From a virus, in the IMG/VR virus record IMGVR_UViG_3300044577_000018, positions 1 through 54,517 of that record: DNA of 54,517 nt. One strand, written 5' to 3'. The number at the start of each line of letters is the position of its first letter. Position 1 is the stretch's first letter. The notes beneath the pieces are model-generated. The model worked only from the letters and a program-made list of their open reading frames with translations, searched no databases and was not told where the DNA came from. Of this stretch, positions 4,024 through 54,481 are shown in pieces. A program made the position numbers and the translations under genes.

Positions 4024-4746
4024 GTGTTGCACATGATAGTAGCCGTCATCCCCTTCCGAGCCAACTCGAAAGGCGTACCCGGTAAAAACACCCGCCTCGT
4101 GGCTGGTAAGCCCCTTTGGGTGTGGTCTCTAGAAGCTGCCGAGCGCGCCCGCTGCGTCGATCGCATTATCATTACAACGGACATTGATAGAGTCTCTCTT
4201 TTCAACCGGACGGGAATTGGTGCACTCGATCAACTCTACACCTCTGCCGGTATCTCGCTTCGGACTGAGTACATACAGCGTCCCGCCGAGCTGGCAACCG
4301 ATACCGCCACTCTAGACGAAGTCTTAATACACGCTGCCGACGCCTCTGTACCTCGTCTACCCGACGACGCAATAATAATGCTACTCCAGCCTACAGTTCC
4401 CGTCCGCCGGCCAGGTCTTCTAGACGACTGCTCTATTCTGTTTTCGCGTTTCCCCGCGGCTAAGTCCCTGCTAACCGCCAACCCGCTACACTACATCTGG
4501 CACGGCGACTCGGGGCGTCTTCTAAACCCGCCGCGCCGGAACCGCCAGGACATGAGCGGAGAGCAGCGCTACTTCCACGAGGACGGATCGGTATTCATGG
4601 TGCGCGCTGGCGACTTACGCGCTACCGGTAGCCGGGTTGTGGAGCCTGTTGTGCTGTTTGAGACTGAGCAGACAGTAGATATAGACACCGAAGCGGATAT
4701 GCGTTTAGCTGCTAGTCTACTCTCGTGCAACGATGGTACGAAGTAG
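4024..4746 (+). CDS. CMP-nonulosonic acid synthetase-like cytidylyltransferase
   Basis: Proteins of this family couple CTP to a nine-carbon acid sugar (sialic, legionaminic or pseudaminic acid) to give the CMP-activated donor. The nucleotide-binding signature VAVIPFRANSKGVPGKN lies near residues 6-22. It is followed by LWVWSLEAAERA and the strand IIITTDIDRV typical of the NeuA/PseF fold. A later segment, IIMLLQPTVPVR, matches the family's LLQPTSPxR, and the C-terminal VDIDTEADMRLA is also typical. The length of 240 residues is normal for a single-domain synthetase. It sits between terL and the head genes, apart from the other sugar genes near 50-54 kb. The exact sugar is not decidable here. 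Confidence 0.85.
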   Translation: MLHMIVAVIPFRANSKGVPGKNTRLVAGKPLWVWSLEAAERARCVDRIIITTDIDRVSLFNRTGIGALDQLYTSAGISLRTEYIQRPAELATDTATLDEVLIHAADASVPRLPDDAIIMLLQPTVPVRRPGLLDDCSILFSRFPAAKSLLTANPLHYIWHGDSGRLLNPPRRNRQDMSGEQRYFHEDGSVFMVRAGDLRATGSRVVEPVVLFETEQTVDIDTEADMRLAASLLSCNDGTK

Positions 4747-30311: not shown

Positions 30312-30702
30312 GACGCTACAGGTTGCGGTGCTCTATTCTGATCTCGCTGTATGCAAGGTGGAGTGGTCGGGGAAAGAAACCCTAAAACGTGACGACGTTC
30401 TCGCAATCGCGATAGTTCACCCGAAGGAAGAAGCTCGTAGGAAGCGCCACCAGGCCGTCATCGAGCATGACTTTTACGTACTTGCATGGACGGATACCGA
30501 ATGCTACCTCGGTGGCTACGACGACGACTATTACTGGTTCAGCCTGACTGAACCATGGAAGCCGTACGGTGAAGGATTCACGCATCGGTTTCCGTTCACA
30601 CTTCCAGAGAACTCAATGCTGTTCGAAGGTGTCTTCGTTGACAAGGAAGTCTACGCACAGGCGAAGCTGATCTTCGGTGACCGTGAAGGGCCGATGTTCT
30701 AA
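30301..30702 (+). CDS. Hypothetical protein
   Basis: A 133-residue protein that overlaps the preceding gene and shares a one-base junction with the next (TAATGG). It has two apparently folded parts: VAVLYSDLAVCKVEWSG and the aromatic, acidic GGYDDDYYWFSLTEPWKPYG. It is probably part of the appendage cluster. No motif is recognised. Confidence 0.45.
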   Translation: MLSKTLQVAVLYSDLAVCKVEWSGKETLKRDDVLAIAIVHPKEEARRKRHQAVIEHDFYVLAWTDTECYLGGYDDDYYWFSLTEPWKPYGEGFTHRFPFTLPENSMLFEGVFVDKEVYAQAKLIFGDREGPMF

Positions 30703-33632
30703 TGGCATTCGTTAGTCCTGATCTTGCGGAAGGTGTCAACCTTACCAGCGCCGCTGCCGACGACGGATCGAAAAATACAGAAGCCAACCTGAACGACGGC
30801 AATACCGGCACCACAGCCTTGAACGAAATCCGGAAAGGGATGTCTGGGTACAAGATGACCCACGACATCGGCTTCGCCGTCGCGAACATCGATACTCTCA
30901 AGGTCCGTGCGTTCGACGGCGTGATGATGGCGACGGGCGACAGCCCGATCTACCCGTACTCGTCGGGCGACGTAGCAGTTGTCACTGGCAACGAGCAGAA
31001 CCTAACGATAAACGACAACGGCGCCTACGACGAGATCACTATGTCGGCGGCCTTTATCGCTGACCTTGGTGACGTCGGTACTAACCAGATCAGTATCCGC
31101 TTCTCGTATGACGGGTCTATTCGCGGTCGGTTCAATCAGATACAGCTTGAGGTGACGGAAGCCGCAAGCGGATCAGTTGGATCGTCCTCAGGGCTTGCTA
31201 CCGTTCTCGCTGTAGGACTGTCGCTATTCTCGGGAGTAGGGTCTAGTGCGGGCGCGGCTACTGTCTCAGGTGCGGGCGCGGCCATACATTCAGCTACAGG
31301 CGCTAGCGCAGGTACTACAACTGTCTTGGGTGCCGGAGCTGCTATCCACTCAGCCGTGGGGGCTAGCGCGGGTGTCGCTACCGTCTTAGGTGTAGGGCAA
31401 GCTGTAATCGGCGGCAGCGTCGGCGCTAGTGCGGGCGATTCAACTGTTCTAGGCGTTGGTGCTTCTATCCACTCTGGTGTTGCCTCAAGTGCCGGTACTT
31501 CAACCGTCCTAGGCGTCAGCGCTTCTACGAATGCGGTCACGGCTTCTAGTGCTGGGGTCGCTACTGTATCCGGGGTGGGGGTTGGCGTCCATTCGGCTAT
31601 AGCCTCGTCTGCCGGTACAACCGTTGTACTGGGTGTGGGGGCTGCTACAGGAGGTTCTATTGGCGCTAGTGCAGGCAGCTCAACTGTTGTAGGTGTAGGG
31701 GCTCCTCTTGTTTCAGTTGTTGGCGCGGCATCGGGTACGTCAACCGTTCTAGCCGTTAGCGCATCCACGAACGCGGTCACAGCTTCCAGTGCCGGTATAG
31801 CTACAGTAGTCGGGGTAGGGGTTGGTATTCACTCGACTGTAGCCTCGTCAGCTGGCGCTGCTACCGTCACAGGTCTAAGTGTTGATGAGATCGTATTGTG
31901 CTTGTCGGCCAACATAGCCGCAAGCGGTGAGAACACCACCGCACAACTCACAGCGCCATCCGGTAAAACTACCGGCGACTTTGATGCCGGTCGTATACAG
32001 GATGACGAAAACCCGGCCGATGCTGTAGACATTACCCTTGACGACTACACCGAGATGGAGTGGGCGATCAAGGGTAGCGTCACCGCCGCGCTTGCTCAGT
32101 ATGAATTCCGCGTCACGGTCAGCGGCACAGTACTAGATACCTACACCGTTACCCCTAAGCTGACCTTTACCGATGTAACCGGTTCCGTTGCTGCTAGCGC
32201 GGGTACTACAGCGGTCGTAGGCGTAGGTACTGGTATTGCGTCGGGGGTTGCGAGCTCGGCTGGCGTTGCAACTGTATCCGGGATAGGGGCCGGTGTTCAT
32301 TCAGGCGTTGGCGCTAGCGCGGGCGTAGCGACTGTTACGGGTGTTGGAGCCGCTATACATTCTGCCGTTGGCTCTGCAGCGGGCACCGCTACCGTACTAG
32401 GGGTTAGCGCCTCCACGAATGCCGTAACCGCGAGTGCAGCCGGTACGTCAACCGTATTAGCCATCAGCGCCTCTACCAACGCGGCTACGGCTTCGTCTGC
32501 TGGTGTCGCAACCGTCATCGGTGTAGGTGCGGCCACTCACTCAGCGGTAGGTGCGGCGTCAGGTACCACTACCGTCGTAGGCGTCGGCGCGGGTGTCGTG
32601 TCATCGGTTGGTAGCTCAGCCGGTACAACAACTGTAGTAGGTACTGGGGCTGCTATCCACTCAGCCGTAGCAAACGCGGCTGGCACTACGACTGTATTAG
32701 GTATTGGTCAAGCGGTAACAGCGGGATCGGTTGGCGCTAGTGCAGGCGCTTCAACCGTTCTAGGTATCGGAGCGGCTACCCACTCAGCTGTTGGATCGGC
32801 CGCCGGGACCACGGTCGCGTTAGGCGTTAGCGCCTCCACGAATGCCGTTACAGCATCTAGCGCGGGTGTCGCGACCGTCTTAGGGGTTGGGACGGGCGTA
32901 GCTTCAGGTGTCGGCTCAAGCGCAGGCGCTACAACAGTCACAGGTGTAGGCGTCGGATTAGCCTCTTCGGTGGCGGCCACCTCAGGCAGCTCTGTTGTCT
33001 TAGGAGTTGGAGCTGCTACCCACTTAGCCGCCGGCTCGAGTGCAGGCACCTCTACCGTACTAGGGGTTAGTGGAGCCGGTATTACGGCGGCTGTAGGATC
33101 GGCTGCCGGTACCTCGACTGTAGCGGGTATCGGCGCTGCGACAGCTTCTAGCACTGCTGCGGCTACGGGTACAACTGTTGTCTTAGGAGTTGGCGCTTCT
33201 ACCGCTACCGCTGTAGCATCCAGCGCTGGCGTCGCAACTGTTACGGGTGTTGGTACCGGTCTCGTTGTTTCTGTCGGCACCAGCGCAGGTGCTTCAACCA
33301 TCGTAGGTGTCGGTACTGGGGTTGCATCCAGTATCGCTTCCTCGGCAGGCGTTGCTACCGTAGCGGGTGTCGGTAGAGCTACCCACTCAGCTATTGCGAG
33401 TGCAGCCGGTACAACAACCGTAGCGGGTATCGGTGCCAGTACAGCTTCCAGCATTGCTTCCTCTGCTGGTGTCGCTACAGTGCTAGGCATTGGCACCGAT
33501 GTGTCCGCGCTTATAGGGGATGTTATCATTGCTACGGTTGTGGATCTCAACGCCACACGTACGGTAGCGGATCTAAATACCACACGTACCGTCGCAGCTC
33601 TGGTAACAAAACGTACGACGGTAAAATTGTAG
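30702..33632 (+). CDS. Large repetitive tail/appendage protein
   Basis: A 976-residue protein. Residues 1-155 form a beta-type head (including VTGNEQNLTINDNGAYDEIT). About 34 near-20-residue units follow, with consensus SSAGxxTVxGVGxxxxSxV, in two blocks of about 12 and 22 units. The blocks are separated by a distinct domain at about 393-490 (SANIAASGENTTAQLTAPSG). The C-terminus carries short TVADLNTTRT-type repeats. Low-complexity Gly/Ala/Ser/Thr/Val units like these occur in phage tail proteins and probably form a long fibre or coat. The same unit occurs twice in the 18515 protein. Confidence 0.6.
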   Translation: MAFVSPDLAEGVNLTSAAADDGSKNTEANLNDGNTGTTALNEIRKGMSGYKMTHDIGFAVANIDTLKVRAFDGVMMATGDSPIYPYSSGDVAVVTGNEQNLTINDNGAYDEITMSAAFIADLGDVGTNQISIRFSYDGSIRGRFNQIQLEVTEAASGSVGSSSGLATVLAVGLSLFSGVGSSAGAATVSGAGAAIHSATGASAGTTTVLGAGAAIHSAVGASAGVATVLGVGQAVIGGSVGASAGDSTVLGVGASIHSGVASSAGTSTVLGVSASTNAVTASSAGVATVSGVGVGVHSAIASSAGTTVVLGVGAATGGSIGASAGSSTVVGVGAPLVSVVGAASGTSTVLAVSASTNAVTASSAGIATVVGVGVGIHSTVASSAGAATVTGLSVDEIVLCLSANIAASGENTTAQLTAPSGKTTGDFDAGRIQDDENPADAVDITLDDYTEMEWAIKGSVTAALAQYEFRVTVSGTVLDTYTVTPKLTFTDVTGSVAASAGTTAVVGVGTGIASGVASSAGVATVSGIGAGVHSGVGASAGVATVTGVGAAIHSAVGSAAGTATVLGVSASTNAVTASAAGTSTVLAISASTNAATASSAGVATVIGVGAATHSAVGAASGTTTVVGVGAGVVSSVGSSAGTTTVVGTGAAIHSAVANAAGTTTVLGIGQAVTAGSVGASAGASTVLGIGAATHSAVGSAAGTTVALGVSASTNAVTASSAGVATVLGVGTGVASGVGSSAGATTVTGVGVGLASSVAATSGSSVVLGVGAATHLAAGSSAGTSTVLGVSGAGITAAVGSAAGTSTVAGIGAATASSTAAATGTTVVLGVGASTATAVASSAGVATVTGVGTGLVVSVGTSAGASTIVGVGTGVASSIASSAGVATVAGVGRATHSAIASAAGTTTVAGIGASTASSIASSAGVATVLGIGTDVSALIGDVIIATVVDLNATRTVADLNTTRTVAALVTKRTTVKL
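31177..33520 (+). repeat. Coding repeat array (about 34 units of 60 bases)
   Basis: The protein-level repeat (20 residues, 60 bases) spans 31177-31890 and 32185-33520. The units vary in codon choice, so the DNA copies are diverged while the protein pattern stays conserved. That argues against recent slippage alone and for selection on the protein. Confidence 0.7.
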
Positions 33633-41600: not shown

Positions 41601-42375
41601 GGCGACATGGCGGGCGAGACCCGGTATGGTACGGCGCGGTCGGGTGCGGTCTGGTTAGGTCAGGCAGACGGGGCACGGAGAGACGGGGCGGGGCAAGACA
41701 CGGCCAGGCGTGGAATGGCTCGGTGGAGGTGAGGTCAGGTGAGGCAGGCGGGGCCGGGCGGGGCCGGGTATGGCCCAGTCAGGCGCGATGCGGCATGGTA
41801 AGACAAGGCAGGCGCGGTGGTGGCAGGGCTCGGTACGGTCAGGTCGGGCTGGATAAGGTTCGGTGAGGCAGGCATGGCATGGTCCGGAAAGGCTAGGTAC
41901 GGCAGGCGGGGCAGGTGTGGTCTGGCCGGGCTGGGCAGCATGAGGCACGGTTCGGTGTGGCATGGCTCGGTCGGATTCGGTACGGTTGGGTACGGCTGGT
42001 GAGGCTCGGCACGGCCCGGCGAGGTTAGGCGCGGCTCGGTGAGGTCGGGTCTGGTGGGGTTGGGTACGGTTCGGCGCGGCCTGGTCGGGTCAGGTCCGGC
42101 TGGGCAGGGCAGGCGAGGTGTGGTGACGTCAGGCAAGGCATGGTTGGGTGACGCCAGACAAGGTACGACGAGGCAGACAGAGCACGGCACGATTGGGTGT
42201 GGTGAGCCAAGGTGTGGTGGGGCAAGGCAGGCAGGTCGAGGTCCGGTTAGGTCGGGCGCGATCCGGCGTGGTAGAGCAAGGCAGGCAAGGCAGGCGCGAT
42301 ATGGCGCGGTCTGGTACGACCCGGCGTGGCTCGGTAAGGTTCGGTCTGGTCTGATAGGGCATGGCAGGCAAGGCA
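41601..42375 (+). repeat. Degenerate five-base (GGYNN) array 1
   Basis: The gap after the Sak4-like gene is filled by five-base units of the form GGYNN, with occasional four-base steps such as GGCA. The first two bases are almost always G and the third is C or T, while the last two vary freely. A stretch of 23 perfect units lies at 41996-42110. No stop-free frame here has the codon pattern of the phage's genes. It ends where the ribosome site of the next small ORF begins. Confidence 0.9.
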
Positions 42376-42390
42376 AAGGAGGAAGAAAGG

Positions 42391-42459
42391 ATGAGCAGAA
42401 AACGAATAAGGACAGCCCGTAAGGTTGGAAAGGTACGAGGAGATCAAAAGGGATCCTAA
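42391..42459 (+). CDS. Possible 22-residue leader peptide
   Basis: A short open frame MSRKRIRTARKVGKVRGDQK... with a very strong AAAGGAGGAAG ribosome site eight bases upstream. It is strongly basic and is followed by the gene at 42503. The ribosome site makes translation likely, but the size makes a product function uncertain. A leader or a coupling peptide is possible. Confidence 0.35.
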   Translation: MSRKRIRTARKVGKVRGDQKGS

Positions 42460-42502
42460 TGGTGGGTTCTCTTTGAAGTACAACGAAAAGAAGGAGCAAA
42501 AA

Positions 42503-43387
42503 ATGGCAGTAGCAAAGAAGAAACCAAACGCGCAAGAAGAGATCCCAGTTCTAGAGATCACACAAGGTTGTATCGACTTCCATATAGTCGGTACCACGCC
42601 TCTGATCTGTAACTCTATGTCCGAGAAGGCTGCGCACGAGTTGCTTTTGCCCAAGGGCCGGAAGACGGACGCCGAGAAACGATCCACTTTAAAGCATAAT
42701 CCGCCTGAGGAGTACCGCGACAGCATCTACCGGGCTACCGAGAGTGATGCACCGACACGCATTACGATCTTAGCCACGTCGTTCAAGAGTGCTTTGCGCG
42801 ATGCGGCGATCGACATGCCGGATGTCAACAAGTCACAGATCGGACGCTTGACATACGTGGAGGGGGACTATCGCAACGGGAGCTATGTGCACATTTACGG
42901 TGTCCCTGAATTGCACATGTGTTTCGTACGTAGCGCCAATATGGCCCGTACTCCGGACGTCCGTACCCGTGCGATCATACCTGAATGGGCCTGCATCCTT
43001 CGCATCAAGTACACTATGCCTCTGCTACGCGAGAGATCGGTTAGTAATTTGTTGGCCGCTTCGGGACTCATTCGGGGTGTAGGAGACTGGCGCCCAGAGA
43101 AAGGTTCAGGCAGCTACGGACAATTCAAGCTTGTGCCCAAGAGCGACAGTCAATTCAAGCGGATCGTGAAAAACGGCGGACGCGAAGATCAGGATTCGGC
43201 TCTGCTGAACCCTTCTTGCTACGACGGCGAGACGGCTAAGCTACTTACGTGGTTCCATAGTGAGTTGTCGAATCGCGGCTTCGATGAAAAGGGTCGTCCT
43301 ATCGGTACCCTTGCCAAGTCGGATAGTAATGCCTTCGTAGACAACGGTGAAGATGAGACGCACGACGAGGCTCGTCTTCAGGGCTAA
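42503..43387 (+). CDS. Conserved phage protein with glycine-rich loop, possible RAMP-like fold
   Basis: The 294-residue product starts at the ATG after AAGGAG. It opens FHIVGTTPLICNSMSEKA and contains the characteristic LRDAAIDMPDVNKSQIGRLT, MARTPDVRTRAIIPEWAC and, near residue 220, GVGDWRPEKGSGSYGQFKL. I know this pattern from other phage genomes next to recombination nucleases. The glycine-rich C-terminal loop (GhGxxxxxGxGxFG) resembles that of Cas7/RAMP proteins, so an RNA- or DNA-binding fold is possible. It is coded between the two GGYNN arrays. Confidence 0.6.
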   Translation: MAVAKKKPNAQEEIPVLEITQGCIDFHIVGTTPLICNSMSEKAAHELLLPKGRKTDAEKRSTLKHNPPEEYRDSIYRATESDAPTRITILATSFKSALRDAAIDMPDVNKSQIGRLTYVEGDYRNGSYVHIYGVPELHMCFVRSANMARTPDVRTRAIIPEWACILRIKYTMPLLRERSVSNLLAASGLIRGVGDWRPEKGSGSYGQFKLVPKSDSQFKRIVKNGGREDQDSALLNPSCYDGETAKLLTWFHSELSNRGFDEKGRPIGTLAKSDSNAFVDNGEDETHDEARLQG

Positions 43388-43394
43388 CCCATTT

Positions 43395-43444
43395 TGATTC
43401 AGAGCTGCCGCTTGAAAGTTAAAAGCGGCAGCTCTGAATCTTTT
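43395..43444 (+). terminator. Strong Rho-independent terminator
   Basis: A perfect 18-bp stem, GATTCAGAGCTGCCGCTT (43395-43412) with AAGCGGCAGCTCTGAATC (43422-43439), has a nine-base loop and is followed by TTTTT (43440-43444). It ends the transcript after the 42503 gene. Confidence 0.85.
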
Positions 43445-43460
43445 ATCAGGAGGTTTTCAA

Positions 43461-43970
43461 ATGAACATGCCCAACACCAAAAGACGCGCGTTAGTAGAAA
43501 ACGCCATACGTGCACTAGAAGATGATCAAGGTTGCATAACGCCTGAGAATGTTATCGACGTCGCAAGGGATCCCAGAAGCGCTTTGCACTCAGAGTTCGA
43601 ATGGGATGACGCCAAGGCCGGACACGCCCACCGTCTGGACCAAGCTCGGGTACTCATTCGCAGTGTCAAGGTGGTCGTCACAATTGAAAGACACACGATC
43701 GCCGCTCCCTACTATGTGCGTGACCCTAATGTGCAGCCGGCCGAACAGGGCTATGTCGCGCTCGAACGCATACAAAAGGATCCACAAGGTGCGTTAGCTA
43801 TGCTGAATTACGAATTTACGCGGGCTAACGCACACTTGACGAGAGCGGAAGAGATAGCGGAGGCGGTTGGTATGAAGGCTGATTTGGCAGCTGCTATACG
43901 TAACGCTCGAGCTGCTAGCAAGAAGATCGAGAAGACGGTTAAGCGTTTGAAGGACAAGGGCGAAGAGTGA
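43461..43970 (+). CDS. Hypothetical helical protein
   Basis: A 169-residue mainly helical protein, RALVENAIRALEDDQGCITP at the start, with a beta-containing centre (VKVVVTIERHTIAAPYYVRD) and a long C-terminal coiled coil (ARAASKKIEKTVKRLKDK). It is preceded by CAGGAGG and lies between the terminator and array 2. No family is recognised. Confidence 0.5.
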   Translation: MNMPNTKRRALVENAIRALEDDQGCITPENVIDVARDPRSALHSEFEWDDAKAGHAHRLDQARVLIRSVKVVVTIERHTIAAPYYVRDPNVQPAEQGYVALERIQKDPQGALAMLNYEFTRANAHLTRAEEIAEAVGMKADLAAAIRNARAASKKIEKTVKRLKDKGEE

Positions 43971-44530
43971 CGGCAGGGTTAGATGCGGCCCGGTTCGGTC
44001 GGGCGCGGCTTGGCGGGTATGGCGCGGCAGGGCGAGGTGAGGTTCAGTCTGGTGAGGCTGGGCGAGGCGGGGTGAGGTATGGTCTGGTAAGGCAGGTGCG
44101 GCCGGGTTAGGTCTGGTCGGGCGAGATCAGGCGAGATGTGGCTTGGTCTGGTGAGGCAGGCAAAGGCAAGGCGCGGTACGGCTTGGTGGGGTCGAGTGAG
44201 GCTTGACTCGGCAGTCGGGGTCCGGCCCGGTTTGGCGCGGCAAGGTTAGGTAAGGCAGGTACGGCCCGACGGGGCTTGGTACGATAGGGTTGGGCGAGGT
44301 TCGGTAAGGCGTGGCAGGTGCGGTAGGTTCGGCTGGGTATAGTCTGGTTGGTCAGGTTCGGTAGGGTATGGTGCGGTCGGGTCCGGCGTGGCAGGCGAGA
44401 CACGGACTGGCCAGGTGAGGCGAGGCTGGGTTGGGCCGGGCGTGGTTTGGTACGGCAGACGAGGTTAGGTCAGGTAGGGCACGGTATTGTATGACTCGGT
44501 TCGGTTCGGTGAGGCAGGCGGGACTCGGCT
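43971..44530 (+). repeat. Degenerate five-base (GGYNN) array 2
   Basis: A second tract of the same GGYNN five-base periodicity begins at the stop of the 43461 gene and runs to just before the ERCC4 nuclease. Like array 1 it is G-rich, with variable last two bases and some slips of phase. Units such as GGTGA, GGCTG, GGCGA, GGCGG are read in the line 44041-44100. Confidence 0.88.
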
Positions 44531-44561
44531 TAGATCGCGGGAGTAGGGGCAGAATGGTAAA

Positions 44562-45305
44562 GTGCTGATAGATGACCGTGCCGGCTCCCGTGATCTGATA
44601 GGCTACTCGCCCCTTACCTCAACTTCCGAACTCACTCGCCTGGACTCTGGCGATGCCCTTATAACCGGCAACGGTCCTAACGATTCGGTTCTACTCATAG
44701 GCGTCGAGCTGAAAACCATATCCGATCTACTCTCCTCCACCGCAACCGGACGCCTACAAGCAACCCAGCTCCCGGCTATGCTCAAGCACTACGATATCTC
44801 CTACCTTCTGTACTACGGTCATTACCGATCGGGGCGCAAGGGCGAGCTACAGACTTACCGCTACACCAAACGACGCAAGCGTTACGAGTGGCGATCCATA
44901 CCCATTAGCCGATCGCGTTTGATACCGTACTCGTATCTCGACAGCTTCCTACTGACTCTGAGCGCTGTAGGCGTACGCTTGAAGCACGTAGAGTCCATAA
45001 CCCATGCGGCTCTATGGCTTGGCATTCTCGAGAAGTGGTGGTCGAAGCCGTGGGACAAGCACAGGGCGCTACATACGTTTGACAACTCGAGTACGATAAG
45101 CCTTTTGCCGGGCTTAGATCCGGACGTGCTACAGCGCGCGCGGGTGGCCCAACAGTTGCCGGGAGTAGGCTTCGAGCGCGCGGTAGCTGCGGCAAGACAC
45201 TTCTCAAGCATACGAGACATGATGAATGCTACAGCCGAGCAGTGGGAAGAGATAGAGGGGATCGGTAAGGTGGTAGCGAAGGCGGTTGAAAGAGCTATTA
45301 GATGA
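44562..45305 (+). CDS. ERCC4-type nuclease with helix-hairpin-helix
   Basis: The 247-residue product opens with IDDRAGSRDLI and includes VELKTISDLLSS with TGRLQATQLPAM. These match the ERCC4/XPF-like nuclease core (D...E-x-K...SDL, Q). The C-terminal part (VAQQLPGVGFERAVAAARHF and EIEGIGKVVAKAVERAI) is a tandem helix-hairpin-helix that binds branched DNA. It probably processes recombination intermediates. The GTG start lacks a strong ribosome site, so the true start is uncertain. Confidence 0.78.
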   Translation: MLIDDRAGSRDLIGYSPLTSTSELTRLDSGDALITGNGPNDSVLLIGVELKTISDLLSSTATGRLQATQLPAMLKHYDISYLLYYGHYRSGRKGELQTYRYTKRRKRYEWRSIPISRSRLIPYSYLDSFLLTLSAVGVRLKHVESITHAALWLGILEKWWSKPWDKHRALHTFDNSSTISLLPGLDPDVLQRARVAQQLPGVGFERAVAAARHFSSIRDMMNATAEQWEEIEGIGKVVAKAVERAIR

Positions 45306-45927: not shown

Positions 45928-48612
45928 GTGAAAGTGACAGCCGACACCCGCACACGCGATCGTGACGCGCACCTTGAACACGCTATCGAAGTACATGGGC
46001 GCGGCACTTCCCCGAACCGGGTCATGATCGTAGGCGAGCGCCCCGGACGCGAGGAAGTCGAGCAAGGCCGCCCCTTTGTAGGCCCATCCGGCAAAGCCCA
46101 AGAGCACTACCTACGCCTACACGGCTACTCATCTCATCAAGCGTACGTTACTAATCTTTGCAAGTCCTACGATGAGCACAACCTAGATCCCAACCCTGAA
46201 GACGTTGAGTACTGGTCGGCTACCTTGCAGCGGGAGGTGGACGATTGCAAGCCGGATATCATACTCACGATCGGCGCATACGCTACCCGCTGGTTTCTAG
46301 GTAAGCACGTCTACATGGCTGACGTACACGGAATACCGCATAAGTCGCCGAGAGCATCCAAGGCGATCGTTATGCCGTGCTTCCACCCAGCCGGCGGCTT
46401 CTACGACTCGAGCGCTAGGACCTTGATAGCGTGGGACTATGCGCAAGCGGTAGCGGCTATTAAAGGGCGGGTGGCGGAGCCGGCGGTTGATGAGTACGTC
46501 GGACGTGAGAAATACTTGGATGTCACGGGCGAGCAGTTGGCCGCCATAACTCTAGAGCGCTTTGGATCAAGCGACGTGCGGGCTCTCGGTCCGGTACCCT
46601 CGAAGTATCGTATCCCGTACTCCCTAGCTGTAGATACCGAGGGAACGCCAAGCAACCCGTGGTCCATTCAGGTGTCCGTCTACGCAGGTACCGGCTACGT
46701 CCTTCGCTGTACGCAACCCGACTTTGCAACCGGTATCCAAGCTCTACAACGTGTAGCCGACTCGGGCACCACCATTGCGATCCATAACGGCATGTACGAC
46801 CTAGAAATGTGTCGCGTCATGGGACTCGATCTATATGACGCGCACCTATGGGATTCCATGTACGCGGCTTACGTCTTACGCGTCGAGCCCCAAGGTCTAA
46901 AACCGCTAGCCTACCGTTGGTGTGGTATGGAGATGAAGTCTTATCAGGACGTAGTAGGTGACGTAGGACTAGAAAAGCAGATCGACTACCTGGTAGCTGT
47001 GTCGGATCTAGATACCCCGGACCCGGAGCCCCGCATCATCCAGGATAACGACGGCACGGCTAGACTCTACAAACCCCAACCGCTGCGCCGTAGGGCTGAA
47101 TCAATACTCGTCGACTACTACAGCGAGAAGCTCGATAAGGACGGCAACCGTACAGACCCTTACAAGCGGTGGACGAAGCAAACGCCGCGCGACCTCCGCG
47201 AGCCTGCGGAAGACATACTGGGTCCCATGCCCGAAGGTACACTAGGCGACTTACCTCTTGAGGACGCCGTACGCTACGCAGCCCGCGACCCCGACGCTAC
47301 CTTACGTCTCATGCGCGCGTTAGTACCTGCACTAGAAACGCATGATCTTACCGATCTCCATCGCGACGGCATGGACGTGCTACCCGTTTTCGAGGAAATG
47401 CAATCGAATGGCATACCCGCGCGTAAGACGCACTTCGAGGATCTATCCGAGCACGTACGCACGGAAATGGACAAGCGTCAAGTACACATAGCGGTTAAGT
47501 ACTACGAAAACCGCCCCTTCAACCCTGGGAGCCCTAAAGACGTCGCAACCTTATTACGTCGTCGCGGTCTCGTTCCCGAGAAGCATACTCCCACGGGTAA
47601 GATCTCAACCGGTAAAGAGTCAATAGAGCACTTCCGTTTCACCGACGACGCCATTAAAAACGTGATCGAATGGCGCGAATTGCAGAAGGTGGATACCGGC
47701 TTTTGTCGTCCTTTGATAGAGACCTTTCCCCTTGGCGTCGATCATCACCCGGTACGCACCAAGATCCTAACGACTCGTACCACGGCGCGTCGGATAGCTG
47801 CCAAGGGTATCAATTTTTTAGCTATCCCTATCCGACACGAACTAGGTAAGCGGCTGCGTAACGGCTTTGAAGCGGACGAGGGCTGTGTTTTCGGTGCATG
47901 GGATCTGAGTCAGATCGAGATGCGCTACACTGCTCACGTCTCGCGCGATCCGCTACTCGTTAAGCTGTTCCGCGACGGCCGCGACATTCACGCCGAAACC
48001 GCTGCCTCTGTATTCGGTATCCCTCTAGCCGACGTCGATGAGCTCGAGCACCGCTACCCATCCAAGCGTGCGGGGTTCGGCATCCTTTACGGCATTCAAG
48101 GGTACGGGTTGCTAGATCAGCTACGCATGTTTGGTTGCAAGGGGTGGACTGTCGACAAGTGCGACGAGCTCATAGCTGAATGGCTCAAGCTCTATAAGGG
48201 CGTTCCTGCGTACAGTGAGCTGTGTGTCAACGAAGCGCGCGAGAGTGGTGTGGTTCGAGATTGCTGGGGTATGCCTCGGTACGTACCTGAGATATGGTCG
48301 GACGACTCGTATACACGGGCAGAGGCGGAGCGCTTCATTATGTCGCACAAGGTCCAAGGCGGGGCACAAGGCATGATCCAAAAGTCCATGGCTTGGCTCA
48401 AACCCTACGTACGGTCTCTTAGGGCTGCGCATGTGCGCGTTGAGTGGTTACTACAGATACACGACGAGCTGATGTTTATGTTTGCCGAGCACTTGTGGGA
48501 AGTAATGGATCCGCTTGTTACTGAAGCGCTAACCAAGCACTCGCTTGAGCTGATCGTACCTGTAGAAGCTAAAGGCGGGATGGCTAAAAGGTGGGGCGGG
48601 TTGAAAGGATGA
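45928..48612 (+). CDS. Uracil-DNA glycosylase-like domain fused to family A DNA polymerase
   Basis: The 894-residue protein has three parts. An N-terminal family 4 UDG-like domain (about 25-180) shows VMIVGERPGREEVEQGRPF and later CFHPAG. A 3'-5' exonuclease follows with AVDTEGTP and HNGMYDLEMCR. The family A polymerase has motif A WDLSQIEMRY (about 656-665), motif B KRAGFGILYG (about 713-722) and motif C QIHDELMF (about 843-850). All catalytic carboxylates are visible. It is the replicative polymerase of the phage. Start choice between GTG at 45928 and 45934 is open. Confidence 0.85.
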   Translation: MKVTADTRTRDRDAHLEHAIEVHGRGTSPNRVMIVGERPGREEVEQGRPFVGPSGKAQEHYLRLHGYSSHQAYVTNLCKSYDEHNLDPNPEDVEYWSATLQREVDDCKPDIILTIGAYATRWFLGKHVYMADVHGIPHKSPRASKAIVMPCFHPAGGFYDSSARTLIAWDYAQAVAAIKGRVAEPAVDEYVGREKYLDVTGEQLAAITLERFGSSDVRALGPVPSKYRIPYSLAVDTEGTPSNPWSIQVSVYAGTGYVLRCTQPDFATGIQALQRVADSGTTIAIHNGMYDLEMCRVMGLDLYDAHLWDSMYAAYVLRVEPQGLKPLAYRWCGMEMKSYQDVVGDVGLEKQIDYLVAVSDLDTPDPEPRIIQDNDGTARLYKPQPLRRRAESILVDYYSEKLDKDGNRTDPYKRWTKQTPRDLREPAEDILGPMPEGTLGDLPLEDAVRYAARDPDATLRLMRALVPALETHDLTDLHRDGMDVLPVFEEMQSNGIPARKTHFEDLSEHVRTEMDKRQVHIAVKYYENRPFNPGSPKDVATLLRRRGLVPEKHTPTGKISTGKESIEHFRFTDDAIKNVIEWRELQKVDTGFCRPLIETFPLGVDHHPVRTKILTTRTTARRIAAKGINFLAIPIRHELGKRLRNGFEADEGCVFGAWDLSQIEMRYTAHVSRDPLLVKLFRDGRDIHAETAASVFGIPLADVDELEHRYPSKRAGFGILYGIQGYGLLDQLRMFGCKGWTVDKCDELIAEWLKLYKGVPAYSELCVNEARESGVVRDCWGMPRYVPEIWSDDSYTRAEAERFIMSHKVQGGAQGMIQKSMAWLKPYVRSLRAAHVRVEWLLQIHDELMFMFAEHLWEVMDPLVTEALTKHSLELIVPVEAKGGMAKRWGGLKG

Positions 48613-49663: not shown

Positions 49664-49842
49664 GGTGCCCTGAGTGTGGAAACACTGTCGAATACCCGAC
49701 TGTCGATATAGGCATAGGAGAGGTGCAGTGTGGACCTGCATCCTGCCCCGAATGCAATTGGGCTGAAGAGGATCCTAAGGATAAGAGTGAGGCTGGTTTT
49801 GGTGAGATCCCTTGGGACGAAGGTGAGGACGAGTTTACATGA
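49660..49842 (+). CDS. Small zinc-ribbon protein
   Basis: A 60-residue protein with a GTG start at the previous gene's end. RCPECGNTVEYPTVDIGIG is followed by CGPASCPECNW, giving two CxxC pairs for zinc. The C-terminal half is acidic (DEGEDEF). The stop overlaps the next ATG. Function unknown. Confidence 0.55.
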   Translation: MRCPECGNTVEYPTVDIGIGEVQCGPASCPECNWAEEDPKDKSEAGFGEIPWDEGEDEFT

Positions 49843-51224
49843 CCCCTTACGAGCTCCTAACCAAGCTGTTCCACATACCCCGATCTCTAACCGGTCCCGG
49901 CGTGCGTGAGGCGTTATTCGTCATCAACACCGAGCTCGACGACCTGCTAACTATTCAGGAGGTCCCATCCGGCACCCGCGCTTATGACTGGGTAGTACCC
50001 CCTGAGTGGCGATTTAAGCTAGCGCGCATGAAACGTAAGGATACGGGTGACGTGGTATTCGATACCTCGAAAGGCGATTCTCCGCTGCACGTCGTTGGCT
50101 ACAGTGCATGTACTGATACGGCGCTCTGGTTAGAAGACAACGATCCGCACATACACGTAGGTCCTCGCGAAATGCCTAACGCGATCCCTTACGTCACGAC
50201 CTACTACGCGGATCCGCCTATGTGGGGCATTTGTCTGTCGCACAACCAGTACGAAGCCCTCGATCCTAAAGCCGAATACGCGATAGAGATCGTCTCCGAA
50301 TTCCTAGGTCCCGGCGAATGGCCCGACAGCCTACGCGCTAACGGATCCCTCACTTACGCCGAAGCGGTTATACCCGGCGACACGACGGACGAGATAGTAC
50401 TCTCGAGCTACATCTGTCATACAGGCGGCATGGCTAATAACGAGTGCTCAGGTCCGGCAGTGCTGACGGAGATCGTCAAGTGGTGGCGTAGTCAGCCGCG
50501 CCGATACACCTTGCGAATATTACTCGCACCCGAGACGATAGGCCCGCTCGTTTGGATGAGTCAACAAAAGGGGCCGGAGTCGTGGACAGGGCTTGACTGG
50601 CTCAAGGCGCACGTTAAAGCTGGCTTTACTCTTACGTGCATGGGAGGTGGTGGTACCGGCTACGTCCAGCAAGGCCGACACCCAACGTACGCGAGTCGAA
50701 TAGCTAAGGCGGCACTCGCTATGGGAGACGCGTCTAAGCGCGTGCTGAAGTGGCGATCTCGTATGTCGGACGAGCGCCAATGGTGTGCGCCTGGTATCGA
50801 CTTACCCTGGGCAACGATCATGAAAACGCACCCCAAGGATCCGGAATACGAATACAGATACCATACGTCGGCGGACGATCTTACCTACGTGACCGAAAAG
50901 CAGATAACCGAATCTGTAATAGCTGTAAAGGGTGTACTCGAGGCGGTAGAGCTCGATCGCGTATGGCGTACACGGGTCCTAGGAGAGCCGCAGCTAGGTA
51001 AGCGCGGTTTGTACGATACGATTTCGAAAACCGGGTCCTCTGCACCGTCGCGTTCTTTACTGGACGTGTTGTCGTATTGCGACGGCTGCAGCATGTTAGA
51101 GATAGCGGAGACACTCAAGCGTTCGTTTTCGAGTGTGCAGGCTGATATAGATCGGCTGCGTGAATTCAAACTTATACCGGTATCACGCATTTTTCTACCG
51201 CAGAAGGGTGTGGTGAAGTCATGA
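49839..51224 (+). CDS. DUF4910 aminopeptidase-like protein with winged helix
   Basis: The 461-residue product matches the DUF4910 type of M28-like peptidase fold found in surface-polysaccharide loci. LFHIPRSLTGPGVREAL lies at the N-terminus and LSSYICHTGGMANNECSGPA near 190. Further motifs are LAPETIGPLVWM, and DEVRYHTSADDL-like EYRYHTSADDLTYVTE near 340. The end SMLEIAETLKRSFSSVQADI is a winged helix (HTH_47 type). The metal ligands are partly altered (His-Thr rather than His-Pro), so catalysis is not certain. It precedes the acetyltransferase and PseG-like genes. Confidence 0.7.
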   Translation: MTPYELLTKLFHIPRSLTGPGVREALFVINTELDDLLTIQEVPSGTRAYDWVVPPEWRFKLARMKRKDTGDVVFDTSKGDSPLHVVGYSACTDTALWLEDNDPHIHVGPREMPNAIPYVTTYYADPPMWGICLSHNQYEALDPKAEYAIEIVSEFLGPGEWPDSLRANGSLTYAEAVIPGDTTDEIVLSSYICHTGGMANNECSGPAVLTEIVKWWRSQPRRYTLRILLAPETIGPLVWMSQQKGPESWTGLDWLKAHVKAGFTLTCMGGGGTGYVQQGRHPTYASRIAKAALAMGDASKRVLKWRSRMSDERQWCAPGIDLPWATIMKTHPKDPEYEYRYHTSADDLTYVTEKQITESVIAVKGVLEAVELDRVWRTRVLGEPQLGKRGLYDTISKTGSSAPSRSLLDVLSYCDGCSMLEIAETLKRSFSSVQADIDRLREFKLIPVSRIFLPQKGVVKS

Positions 51225-51475
51225 GTAGAAATAGCGAAAATAGGATCGTACTAGATCTTGTGAAGCGGATAACTCTGCTAGAGAGTCGGATAGCTCGTCT
51301 AGAGTCGGAGATAAGGGGGGCGGAGTGGGTTCCTGTACGTCAGATGACTAGCGCTGGCGGGTGCCGTTGGGTTCCGGCTTCGGCTTATCCTCACTACCCG
51401 CGTTACGATCTCATGCTCGAATATTGGCATGTAGGATATGACAGTGATAGCCGAGACAAGAGCCGAGACGTCTAA
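51221..51475 (+). CDS. Hypothetical protein with coiled coil
   Basis: An 84-residue protein whose start overlaps the DUF4910 stop by ATGA. Residues 8-33 form a heptad-like coiled coil (VLDLVKRITLLESRIARLES). An aromatic C-terminal part (WVPASAYPHYPRYDLMLEYW) resembles a small surface domain. It overlaps the next gene by 38 bases. Function unknown. Confidence 0.5.
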   Translation: MSRNSENRIVLDLVKRITLLESRIARLESEIRGAEWVPVRQMTSAGGCRWVPASAYPHYPRYDLMLEYWHVGYDSDSRDKSRDV

Positions 51476-52283
51476 AGCGGACCTAGTATCCGACTTGCAC
51501 GCTATGGGTGTAAGCAACCGCCACGTGATGGTGCATTCGTCCTACAAGCTGCTAGCGCCTGTCGAGGACGGTCCTAAGGGTGTTGTGGACGCGTTTGTGA
51601 AAGCTGTAGACGCGGGTACCTTGCTGTTCCCGACTTACGACTTTACGAGCTGGACGGAACGCGGATATTGGAGCCGAGACGATACGCCGTCTCAAATGGG
51701 CGTCATATCCGAGACAGCGCGCACAGATCCCCGGTTTTGGCGCACAACTCATCCGGTACTGAGCTACGCGGTCTATCACGATGCGAAAGGCGGGCGTGGG
51801 GGTAGGCGGGTGTGGGGGTACGGGGATGACGTCGTTAACGCGCACGGTCTCGGCTCTGTATTCGATCGGCTAGTTCGCAACCGGGGGCTTTTGATATCCA
51901 TAGGCGCTGAAAAGCAAACCGGGTTCCGTGCTAACGACACAGGCTTCACCATTTCAAACCACGCGGCTCTGTTAGCTGGTGCCCACTGGCGCAAGATAAA
52001 AGTGTTTGAAGGTCTTTATCAAGGCAAGGGCAGTATGCTACGCAGGTACGCGCTATCCGTTAACGCAGATCCGACCAAGTACGTAACGCAAGTAACACCC
52101 GCACACGTACAGGCCGAGAAAGAGGGCGTGATACAGCGTATGACGCTAGGTCGTACCGAGTGCTGGGTAGCGGATGCAGCCGAGTTCGTAGAGTGGGCTA
52201 TCCAAGCGCATAGGGATCGGCCTGAGTTGTGGTTTACGAGCTCGATGATGAGAGTCCCGGACTGGGATTGGAGCGACGTTTGA
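51438..52283 (+). CDS. AAC(3)-fold N-acetyltransferase
   Basis: The 281-residue product has the AAC(3) core. VMVHSSYKLLAPVEDGPKGV lies near 30-50, followed by TLLFPTYDFTSW and the TTHPVLSYAV motif whose His-Pro-x-x-Ser is diagnostic. Although the family is named for aminoglycosides, members in sugar loci acetylate amino sugars. Given its neighbours, a nonulosonic acid or amino sugar is the likely substrate. It is encoded between the DUF4910 and PseG-like genes. Confidence 0.75.
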   Translation: MTVIAETRAETSKADLVSDLHAMGVSNRHVMVHSSYKLLAPVEDGPKGVVDAFVKAVDAGTLLFPTYDFTSWTERGYWSRDDTPSQMGVISETARTDPRFWRTTHPVLSYAVYHDAKGGRGGRRVWGYGDDVVNAHGLGSVFDRLVRNRGLLISIGAEKQTGFRANDTGFTISNHAALLAGAHWRKIKVFEGLYQGKGSMLRRYALSVNADPTKYVTQVTPAHVQAEKEGVIQRMTLGRTECWVADAAEFVEWAIQAHRDRPELWFTSSMMRVPDWDWSDV

Positions 52284-52338
52284 TAGTCCATACCTCAGAT
52301 AGCAAAACGAGGAGTAAAACAAAAGGAAGGGGAGTAAA

Positions 52339-52596
52339 ATGGAAACGGTTATTTCTGTAGGATCGGGTTTTGGCAGGGCAACAATTGCAAAAGGTACAAG
52401 GCTCAAGAACCTAGATCCCAGACACTCGGCTGTAGTTATTGTGACCTACGTCGGTAGCGAATACGTACATTATACGTCGCCTAAGAATGGTCGGGATTGC
52501 ATGATCTCTATCAATCGCTTGCGCAAAACATGGGGACACCGTAACGGCTACCGGCTAGCTGATGGGGAGACTCCTGCTACGGTCATTCTGCCATGA
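52339..52596 (+). CDS. Hypothetical small protein
   Basis: An 85-residue protein with a GGAAGGGG ribosome site. It has beta-strand character: TVISVGSGFGRATIAKGTRL and AVVIVTYVGSEYVHYTSPKN, with a basic C-terminal RLRKTWGHRNGYR. The stop overlaps the next ATG. Function unknown. Confidence 0.5.
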   Translation: METVISVGSGFGRATIAKGTRLKNLDPRHSAVVIVTYVGSEYVHYTSPKNGRDCMISINRLRKTWGHRNGYRLADGETPATVILP

Positions 52597-53393
52597 AAAC
52601 GCTATACATCAAGGGTTGCCTACCCTCACCTGAATTAGCCGACGCTGTCTTACTCGAGGGTGACGAGGTATGGACTATCAACGTGCAACCGCTACCGCTC
52701 GAGAAGCCCATTACACGTCACTTCTCACTGCATGGGCTAGAGCATGAGCTCGAGAGTCATGGACGCAAATACCTATTATGGCTCTCTAAGTCTGCGGCTC
52801 CTGTCTACTTATTCAGAGATCAGATCCCTTTGTGGGACGGTATTACCTACGAGAGCGGAGGATTGCTACCTAGACCTGCGGATGTAAGAGCCTTTCCACT
52901 AGCGTCGATAGAGGAGGCACTACTAACGCCGCGTCGCTACTTCACGGGTTCGTTTGCCTACCTGCTAGCCTATGCACTTTATTGCGATTTCGACGCGGTG
53001 CATATCGTAGGCGTTGCGTTTTCGGATAGCGGACTGTGGGACTCGCGTTTGCAAGCCGCTGAATGGGTAGAGGGGGGGTACCCTCTTGATTATGCTGGAA
53101 AAAAAAGATCCCCTCGGAGGTCTCCCGAGTACGAGCAGAAGCTTGAAACGTATCGCAAGGCAAATCACGTAATAGACGACTTACGTGGTATGGGTACGGG
53201 CGATGAGTCATGGGCGCGGGAGTGCATTATGTACTGGTGCGGCCGGCTCGAGCAGGCGGGCATACGAATCGCAGTAGGGCCTACCTCTCAGCTGTTCCAC
53301 AACAAGTGGATCAAGACACATTGCAAGTACCCTGATGATCCTAAAGCTGAGTGCGGGCTTTATGGGTTGTGCGAGTGCATAGGAGGCAAATGA
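52593..53393 (+). CDS. Rossmann-like protein related to the 7878 gene
   Basis: The 266-residue product begins TLYIKGCLPSPELADAVLLE and has DEVWTINVQ, RYFTGSFAYLLAYALYCDFD, VHIVGVAFSD and IRIAVGPTSQLF. This is the same sequence of motifs as in the 7878-8783 protein. A sugar-modifying or nucleotide-sugar role is plausible because it lies between sugar genes. Start at an ATGA overlap. Confidence 0.5.
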   Translation: MKTLYIKGCLPSPELADAVLLEGDEVWTINVQPLPLEKPITRHFSLHGLEHELESHGRKYLLWLSKSAAPVYLFRDQIPLWDGITYESGGLLPRPADVRAFPLASIEEALLTPRRYFTGSFAYLLAYALYCDFDAVHIVGVAFSDSGLWDSRLQAAEWVEGGYPLDYAGKKRSPRRSPEYEQKLETYRKANHVIDDLRGMGTGDESWARECIMYWCGRLEQAGIRIAVGPTSQLFHNKWIKTHCKYPDDPKAECGLYGLCECIGGK

Positions 53394-54481
53394 CTTACTC
53401 AAACGTCTGCATAGTCACTGAAGGCGGCGGCGACCGAGGGCTAGGACACGTGTACCGATCCATAACGCTGGCAGCTCAGCTACCCGGCTCATACATCAGC
53501 CTACCTTTGACGGTGGGTGCAGAGGCGCGTGCTCTTGTCACCAGCTCGGGGTTAGCTGATGGACCCAGAAACGCGTGGCCTAGTCCTGCCGATGTATTAA
53601 TACGTGACATTCCGATGGGCTACTCAGTAGGACGTGGCGCGCTCCTAACTGTAGACATATGCGACGACATAGCCGAGTCAAGCGGTACGGCTGACGTGAC
53701 GTTTGCTTTCCTCGGTACCAAGGAAGCGAATGCACACGTAAGCGATCATGCAGCCGGCAAGTACTACGGTCTACGGTACGCTATCCTACGTCAGGAATTT
53801 GCGGACCCCGTACCCTACGCCCAGCGTGACAAGGACACGATCACCATATGTTTGGGCGGTGTCGACCCATCACACGCCACGGATGCTATCGCCTCAGCCA
53901 TTCAACCGATAGTCGCTGAGTCGGCTGGATGTGAGCGCGTTCAAGTTATCAAGGGACCGGGCAACGAGCCTAGCACGGGAACGCTAGACAGGGATCGAGA
54001 ACCCGTCACCCCTACCCCTGTCAAACAACTCCCGGTATGGCAGGCCCTATCTCGGTCCCGCCTCGCTATCGTCTCACCCGGCTCGACCCTCCTCGAGTGC
54101 GCCGCCATGGGAGTACCAGCACTCGTGGTATCTCATAACGAGCGGGAACACAACCGAGTTATGAATATGATGCGAGCGGGGTGCGACTGGTTCGATTACT
54201 CTGGTGGCGCTTCTGACTTTCTCGGCTTCTATCTCGACAGGGTTACCGAGCTGGTAGCGTCTAATGTCGCGTACTATATAGACCCCCCCAATGTATGCGC
54301 CTTGAATGCTATGTCCACCGCCGGCTCCCGATCCCTAGACGGGTGCGGGGCATGGCGTGTAGGGGGGGCACTTCGCCGCAGGATTCACGAGCTCAACGCT
54401 TCCGCTCCCGCCCCCGCTGTGCAGTTTCATGGTAACGAAGATGAAGATACATCGTTAGGAGGGTGGGTAGGTAATGACTGA
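53390..54481 (+). CDS. PseG-like UDP-sugar hydrolase
   Basis: The 363-residue product, started at the ATG after AGGAGG, has the GT-B-like layout of PseG, which removes UDP from a 2,4-diacetamido-trideoxy-altrose in pseudaminic acid synthesis. TEGGGDRGLGHVYRSITLA lies near 9-27, TICLGGVDPSH near 160-170, and VSPGSTLLECAAMGVPALV near 230-248. The N-terminal nucleotide loop and the C-terminal acceptor motif are both present. The C-terminus is extended by about 40 residues. Its neighbour is a second sugar protein. Confidence 0.8.
   Translation: MTYSNVCIVTEGGGDRGLGHVYRSITLAAQLPGSYISLPLTVGAEARALVTSSGLADGPRNAWPSPADVLIRDIPMGYSVGRGALLTVDICDDIAESSGTADVTFAFLGTKEANAHVSDHAAGKYYGLRYAILRQEFADPVPYAQRDKDTITICLGGVDPSHATDAIASAIQPIVAESAGCERVQVIKGPGNEPSTGTLDRDREPVTPTPVKQLPVWQALSRSRLAIVSPGSTLLECAAMGVPALVVSHNEREHNRVMNMMRAGCDWFDYSGGASDFLGFYLDRVTELVASNVAYYIDPPNVCALNAMSTAGSRSLDGCGAWRVGGALRRRIHELNASAPAPAVQFHGNEDEDTSLGGWVGND

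What the first reader, a model, noticed from the sequence alone, without database searches (positions are those of the whole stretch)
43971..44530. Second GGYNN array, flanking a two-gene block with the first
The second array has the same rule but different units, and starts right at the stop codon of its upstream gene, as the first does. Together the arrays bracket the genes at 42391-43970 (basic peptide, RAMP-like protein, helical protein). Two copies of a rare pattern around one block suggest a functional unit, or a cassette moved by recombination.
Basis: partly seen in the sequence, partly recalled or inferred. Interest (0 to 1): 0.8.

Follow-up and report, generated by a model that had tools for sequence, protein, structure and literature searches.

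The report
Phage guide-RNA arrays of VIPR system
The two odd GGYNN repeat arrays and the two genes between them form a VIPR system, a recently described phage relative of CRISPR in which a small Cas7-like protein uses RNAs made of GGY-NN units as guides against (usually rival) DNA; this copy has an unusual, well-punctuated pair of arrays.

Summary
Observation confirmed: 43971-44530 is a + strand array of GGYNN pentamers, like array 1 (about 41601-42377); 47 perfect 6-unit matches versus 0 in shuffles. Between them lie a Cas7-fold RAMP gene (42503-43387) and a helical gene (43461-43970). In IMG/VR at least 120 contigs carry such arrays; the RAMP family is by far the commonest neighbour (61 of 121 loci). 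All 9 homologues found in bacterial genomes, and all 11 isolated Mycobacterium/Gordonia phages inspected, have an array beside the gene. The RAMP profile matches PDB 36pp 'SUSP1 Vipr protein' (E 9e-37). This is the VIPR system of PMC13142463 (2026 preprint): guides of GGY/NN units whose NN dinucleotides read DNA with a 1-nt skip. New here: arrays are cut into blocks of about 8-16 units by a 4-nt GGCA slip (212 of 226 four-base slips); this class goes with the second gene's family; near-identical isolated phages differ by whole GGCA blocks while vipr is 99-100% identical. 'Functional unit' is right; recombination ends are not the best reading. No target of the window's 19 guide segments was found convincingly. 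Verdict: new member of a known, very recent kind.

The parts
41601..42377 (+). Array 1: GGYNN guide-RNA array of about 130 GGY motifs, cut by GGCA slips (about 10 segments)
42391..42459 (+). 22-aa basic ORF with a ribosome-binding site; role unknown, possibly only a leader ORF
   Evidence: read from sequence; no homologue tested
42503..43387 (+). vipr: RAMP / Cas7-fold protein, phrog_4652 family, with a C-terminal extension of about 80 aa absent from SUSP1 Vipr
43396..43440 (+). Perfect 18-bp hairpin followed by CTTTTAT, terminator-like, between vipr and vap
   Evidence: z -7.3; self-complementary match
43461..43970 (+). vap: helical protein of the phrog_15946 family, predicted helices + beta hairpin + C-terminal coiled coil; weak winged-helix-like similarity only
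43971..44530 (+). Array 2: GGYNN guide-RNA array of about 100 GGY motifs, cut by GGCA slips (about 9 segments)
44532..44596 (+). 12-bp stem (44532-44543 with 44585-44596) just after array 2; possible 3' tail or end of the array transcript
   Evidence: z -1.8, weak

Best explanation
The block is a phage-borne VIPR system. The arrays are transcribed on the + strand into guide RNAs (vrRNAs) of repeated GGY-NN units; the Cas7-like Vipr protein coats the RNA, holding the GGY triplets and presenting the NN dinucleotides, which pair with double-stranded DNA in the pattern NNxNNx. The complex binds and silences genes of rival phages, satellites or prophages; Vap is an accessory, probably a DNA-binding protein. 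In this class the guides are strung together without separate tails, and a 4-nt GGCA slip marks the boundary between guide blocks of about 8-16 units, giving about 19 guides here. Shown here: array structure, protein family and fold, constant association, block punctuation and block turnover. Taken from the preprint on SUSP1 and P. fulva: guide loading, skip rule, silencing. Inferred: that this copy does the same, and that GGCA marks the ends of individual guides.
For: RAMP family in 61/121 array loci, adjacent in 46; next commonest family (21 loci) is vap. Profile to SUSP1 Vipr: hhalign probability 99.7; PDB 36pp 'SUSP1 Vipr protein' E 9e-37. AlphaFold model (pLDDT 86) matches class 1 CRISPR RAMPs, chiefly Csm3, Z up to 9.9. 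Reciprocal: 9/9 homologues in bacterial genomes and 11/11 isolated phages inspected have an array beside vipr on the same strand. Preprint PMC13142463 describes GGY/NN vrRNAs, Vipr and vap. GGCA: 212 of 226 four-base slips; GGCA-GGCA intervals 64% within 35-65 nt versus 28% if random, 116 of 144 equal 4 mod 5. ByChance lacks one whole block of Saal (vipr 100% identical); Donkeykong has two extra whole blocks relative to Brocalys (vipr 100% identical).
Against: No expression data. No convincing target: the best hit (L131, 23/24 bases over 12 units, in an HTH_17 gene of a satellite-like contig) has the skip base at codon position 2, not wobble, and is about what 63 hits could give by chance. Unbiased tests over 1.2 Mb of loci and 0.28 Mb of actinobacteriophage-related sequence showed no enrichment of the 1-nt skip. 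No structured tail per guide as in SUSP1. Vap is not related by sequence to SUSP1 vap1. In 60 of 121 array loci vipr was not recognised (short contigs, divergence or crude gene calling).
Confidence: 0.9

Rival explanations
1. The arrays are G-rich, R-loop or G-quadruplex forming DNA (GG with 3-nt loops; coding strand G-rich, as in immunoglobulin switch regions) that serves as a replication origin or recombination hotspot beside the replication genes.
For: G fraction 0.47 on the coding strand; helicase, Sak4-like, ERCC4 and PolA genes flank the arrays.
Against: The Y at position 3 is usually kept even when a G is lost (GAY, AGY, CAY units), which G4 or R-loops do not need; arrays follow the vipr gene, not replication genes, in unrelated phages and in prophages; in Gordonia phage ODay the block sits between tail genes.
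Confidence: 0.05
2. The arrays are recombination ends that moved the two-gene block as a cassette.
For: The block is portable between unrelated phages.
Against: Many loci have only one array or three; the arrays have no shared segments (longest common run 3 units), so homologous exchange between them is unlikely; the arrays turn over by internal blocks.
Confidence: 0.03
3. The array RNA is a decoy or a regulator bound by a ring or filament protein of the TRAP kind (NAGNN triplets), not a DNA-reading guide.
For: TRAP also reads triplets spaced by NN (own knowledge); no target found here.
Against: NN would not need to be hypervariable between near-identical phages; the SUSP1 Vipr homologue is shown to read DNA (PMC13142463).
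Confidence: 0.04

Closest known systems
VIPR system of Escherichia phage SUSP1 (type II; PMC13142463, PDB 36pp)
   Same: Homologous Vipr protein; GGY/NN arrays on the coding strand beside vipr; accessory gene next to it; phage-borne.
   Different: SUSP1 has four separate vrRNAs of about 100 nt with a structured tail (GGY runs seen at L125 27.9-29.2 kb); the window has two long tail-less arrays cut by GGCA slips, a different vap family and a Vipr with a C-terminal extension.
VIPRs with staggered arrays of overlapping vrRNAs (mentioned in PMC13142463, fig. S18)
   Same: Probably the same architecture as the window's arrays.
   Different: Cannot be checked: supplements are not held, so the type number is unknown.
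Class 1 CRISPR-Cas (Csm3/Cas7)
   Same: Same RAMP fold; guide modules in an array.
   Different: No identical repeats, no other cas genes among the flanking proteins scanned; guides read DNA non-contiguously (preprint).

Membership tests
VIPR | Vipr RAMP homologue (RRM core, glycine-rich loop) | tested here: met
   conserved G-x-G-D-x-RP...G-x-F near the C-terminal end of the core
VIPR | Tandem repeats of alternating conserved GGY and variable NN beside vipr | tested here: met
VIPR | NN hypervariable between related systems while GGY is kept | tested here: met
   (UmaThurman/Pipp, ODay/Ecliptus, cluster F phages); vipr 88-100% identical
VIPR | Guides of 9-16 units | tested here: inconclusive
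   GGCA-to-GGCA segments mostly 8-16 units, one of 22; RNA ends unknown
VIPR | Conserved structured 3' tail on each vrRNA | tested here: inconclusive
   only a stem after array 2; no tail between blocks; staggered types may differ
VIPR | vap accessory gene beside vipr | tested here: met
   phrog_15946 protein adjacent in window and relatives; not homologous to SUSP1 vap1
VIPR | Encoded mainly by phages and proviruses | tested here: met
   window is an IMG/VR virus record; isolated phages, bacterial contigs
VIPR | NNxNNx targets (1-nt skip) in competing elements | tested here: inconclusive
VIPR | Vipr-vrRNA complex that binds DNA and silences genes | not testable with these tools
   needs experiment
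Class 1 CRISPR-Cas | CRISPR array of identical direct repeats with unique spacers | tested here: not met
   one search finds only short degenerate tandem repeats in the arrays; segments share no run of more than 3 units
Class 1 CRISPR-Cas | Other cas genes next to the RAMP gene | tested here: not met
   no Cas1, Cas10, Cas5 or Cas6 among flanking proteins scanned

The most novel reading that the evidence does not exclude
In the GGCA class of VIPR, guides are stored as modular blocks bounded by a 4-nt GGCA slip and are gained, lost or replaced as whole blocks between near-identical phages, so VIPR arrays evolve like CRISPR arrays without any known adaptation machinery; GGCA would mark the end of one guide and the start of the next.
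Probability: 0.5. Interest if true: 0.7.

Novelty: new member of a known kind. Interest (0 to 1): 0.48.

Why it matters
VIPR is only months old in the literature and few copies are characterised. This locus, and the unannotated copies found in well-studied Mycobacterium cluster F and Gordonia phages, give laboratory-ready members of another class of it. How VIPR guides are acquired is open; the GGCA block grammar and the block gain/loss among nearly identical isolated phages make that question directly testable.

Tried and rejected
CRISPR array: rejected (no repeats, no other cas genes). Structured RNA families and hammerhead ribozymes: no Rfam match in the window up to E 1. Sigma-70 promoters in 40.7-44.8 kb: none above chance. 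Target search for six window guides (8-unit patterns) in IMG/VR: 63 hits; only L131 extends notably (23/24 over 12 units), but the skip base is at codon position 2; treated as unproven. The excess of skip-1 hits is an ascertainment effect, because those loci were fetched with skip-1 patterns. One Mycobacterium szulgai guide against 198 Mycobacterium genomes: 3 hits with 1-2 mismatches, one of them in what reads as a host mycoredoxin gene; chance. All-against-all guides in 1.2 Mb and cluster F/Gordonia guides against Che8, TM4, Giles, Bxb1: no enrichment over shuffles. Vap fold: no confident PDB match. Alignments of distant RAMPs could not seed a collection scan.

Full report
1. The observation. 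Two arrays of GGYNN pentamers are present on the + strand, array 1 at about 41601-42377 and array 2 at 43971-44530, each starting at the stop codon of the gene before it. The exact pattern of six GGYNN units occurs 47 times, all inside the arrays, against none in 100 dinucleotide-preserving shuffles. The rule is stricter than 'G-rich': where a unit deviates, a G is usually lost but the pyrimidine kept (GACAA, GATTC, AGTCA, CATGA; read). All 16 NN dinucleotides occur in array 2 and 15 in array 1, and no two segments share more than 3 consecutive units.

2. What goes with the arrays. In these contigs (GC 39-71%) the arrays are mostly on the coding strand of the neighbouring genes. Clustering all ORFs gave one dominant neighbour: the family of the window's 42503-43387 protein, in 61 of 121 loci and adjacent to the array in 46; second was the family of 43461-43970 (21 loci, 22 after profile search); every other family was in 11 loci or fewer. 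In the other direction, all 9 homologues found in bacterial genomes, among them Mycobacterium szulgai, Sphingomonas soli, Sphingopyxis indica and Novosphingobium, have an array on the same strand beside the gene, and so do all 11 isolated Mycobacterium cluster F and Gordonia phages inspected, where it is unannotated or covered by spurious ORFs.

3. What the protein is. Pfam and PADLOC have no model for it; PHROGs has one of unknown function, phrog_4652. The AlphaFold model (pLDDT 86) matches class 1 CRISPR RAMPs, chiefly Csm3, at Foldseek E 3e-6 and Z 9.9 over 157 residues. A full-text search led to PMC13142463, which describes VIPR: a RAMP protein (Vipr) with guide RNAs of alternating GGY/NN, the NN dinucleotides reading DNA with a 1-nt skip, silencing of competing phages, and an accessory vap gene. 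The window family is the same as SUSP1 Vipr: hhalign probability 99.7, and the profile finds PDB 36pp 'SUSP1 Vipr protein' at E 9e-37; the window protein alone, without the profile, does not reach it.

4. The second gene. It is predicted with high confidence (pLDDT 91) but has no confident structural match (the weak top hit is a DNA-binding protein). It is not related by sequence to SUSP1 vap1. It follows vipr in the closest relatives (L030, L099, L204-L207) and in M. szulgai, so it is this class's vap. A perfect 18-bp hairpin with a T-rich tail lies between the two genes.

5. Grammar of the arrays. The 5-nt register slips by one base at a recurrent GGCA. Over 100 arrays, 212 of 226 four-base slips are GGCA and the median distance is 9 units. 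In GGCA arrays 64% of intervals are 35-65 nt long against 28% for random placement, and 116 of 144 intervals equal 4 modulo 5. Other loci use other punctuation at the same spacing (L020 GGCGTTCAGGG, L107 GGCTAATGGG, L003 GGTRAGGACTTTAGGG). Among loci with vipr and a long array, GGCA punctuation goes with the phrog_15946 gene: 8 of 12 against 1 of 29. The window therefore holds about 19 guide segments, mostly of 8-16 units, which fits the 9-16 units of the preprint. The preprint mentions staggered arrays of overlapping vrRNAs, which may be this class; its supplement could not be read.

6. Block turnover. Among cluster F phages with vipr 99-100% identical, ByChance lacks exactly one GGCA block (59 nt) that Saal has, and Donkeykong has two extra whole blocks relative to Brocalys. 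In Gordonia, UmaThurman/Pipp and ODay/Ecliptus keep vipr at 88-89% DNA identity and similar array edges but share little guide content. So the arrays, not the genes between them, are the variable part, and in cluster F they vary in whole blocks. Whether these are gains or losses is not shown.

7. Is the block a unit? In the closest relatives none of 12 other window genes tested is found near vipr-vap, so the block is a portable cassette. Array position varies: L204 has arrays before, between and after; L206 and M. szulgai on both sides; many have one. The arrays are better read as guide stores than as recombination ends.

8. Targets. Six window guides were searched in IMG/VR with exact 8-unit NNxNNx patterns. 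Flanking units match well only in L131 (23 of 24 bases over 12 units), in an HTH_17 gene of a contig whose ORFs include, by eye, a primase-helicase-like and a terminase-small-like protein, an arrangement that recalls satellites. But its skip base falls at codon position 2, and the match is near what chance allows over all hits. Other tests gave nothing above shuffles. Targets remain open.

9. Mechanism. Shown: anatomy, family, fold, association, punctuation, turnover. From the preprint on homologues: guide loading, 1-nt skip, silencing. Inferred: that this phage uses about 19 guides against rival elements and that GGCA ends a guide.

10. Verdict. New member of a known kind (VIPR), of a class with GGCA-punctuated arrays and a phrog_15946 vap.

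Noticed in passing
window 45928-48612: PolA-family DNA polymerase fused at its N-terminus to a uracil-DNA-glycosylase-superfamily domain (UDG 28-161, exonuclease 232-340, polymerase 502-890).
   Followed up: partly
window 4024-4746 and 49839-54481: Sugar-modification-like genes in a phage: a cytidylyltransferase (CTP_transf_3), a DUF4910 + winged-helix protein and an Antibiotic_NAT-fold acetyltransferase; 53351-54481 reads like a PseG-type protein but had no Pfam match.
   Followed up: partly
window 43396-43440: Perfect 18-bp terminator-like hairpin between vipr and vap, suggesting that the two genes are not simply co-transcribed.
   Followed up: partly
L121-L124, L208-L214: Unannotated VIPR loci in Mycobacterium cluster F phages (Saal, Brocalys, Philus, Pippy, ByChance, Gorge, Donkeykong) and Gordonia phages (ODay, Ecliptus, UmaThurman, Pipp); in ODay the block sits between tail chaperone and tape-measure genes.
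   Followed up: yes
L020, L107, L003, L083, L106: Arrays with other recurrent punctuation of 8-14 nt at the same spacing of 8-12 units, possibly other VIPR types.
   Followed up: partly
L131 73-375: Satellite-like contig whose HTH_17 gene matches 12 consecutive units of window segment 41998-42107 at 23/24 bases by the 1-nt skip rule.
   Followed up: partly
window 30702-33632: 976-aa protein of many degenerate repeats (SSAGVATVxGVG type), probably a phage surface or tail protein.
   Followed up: no
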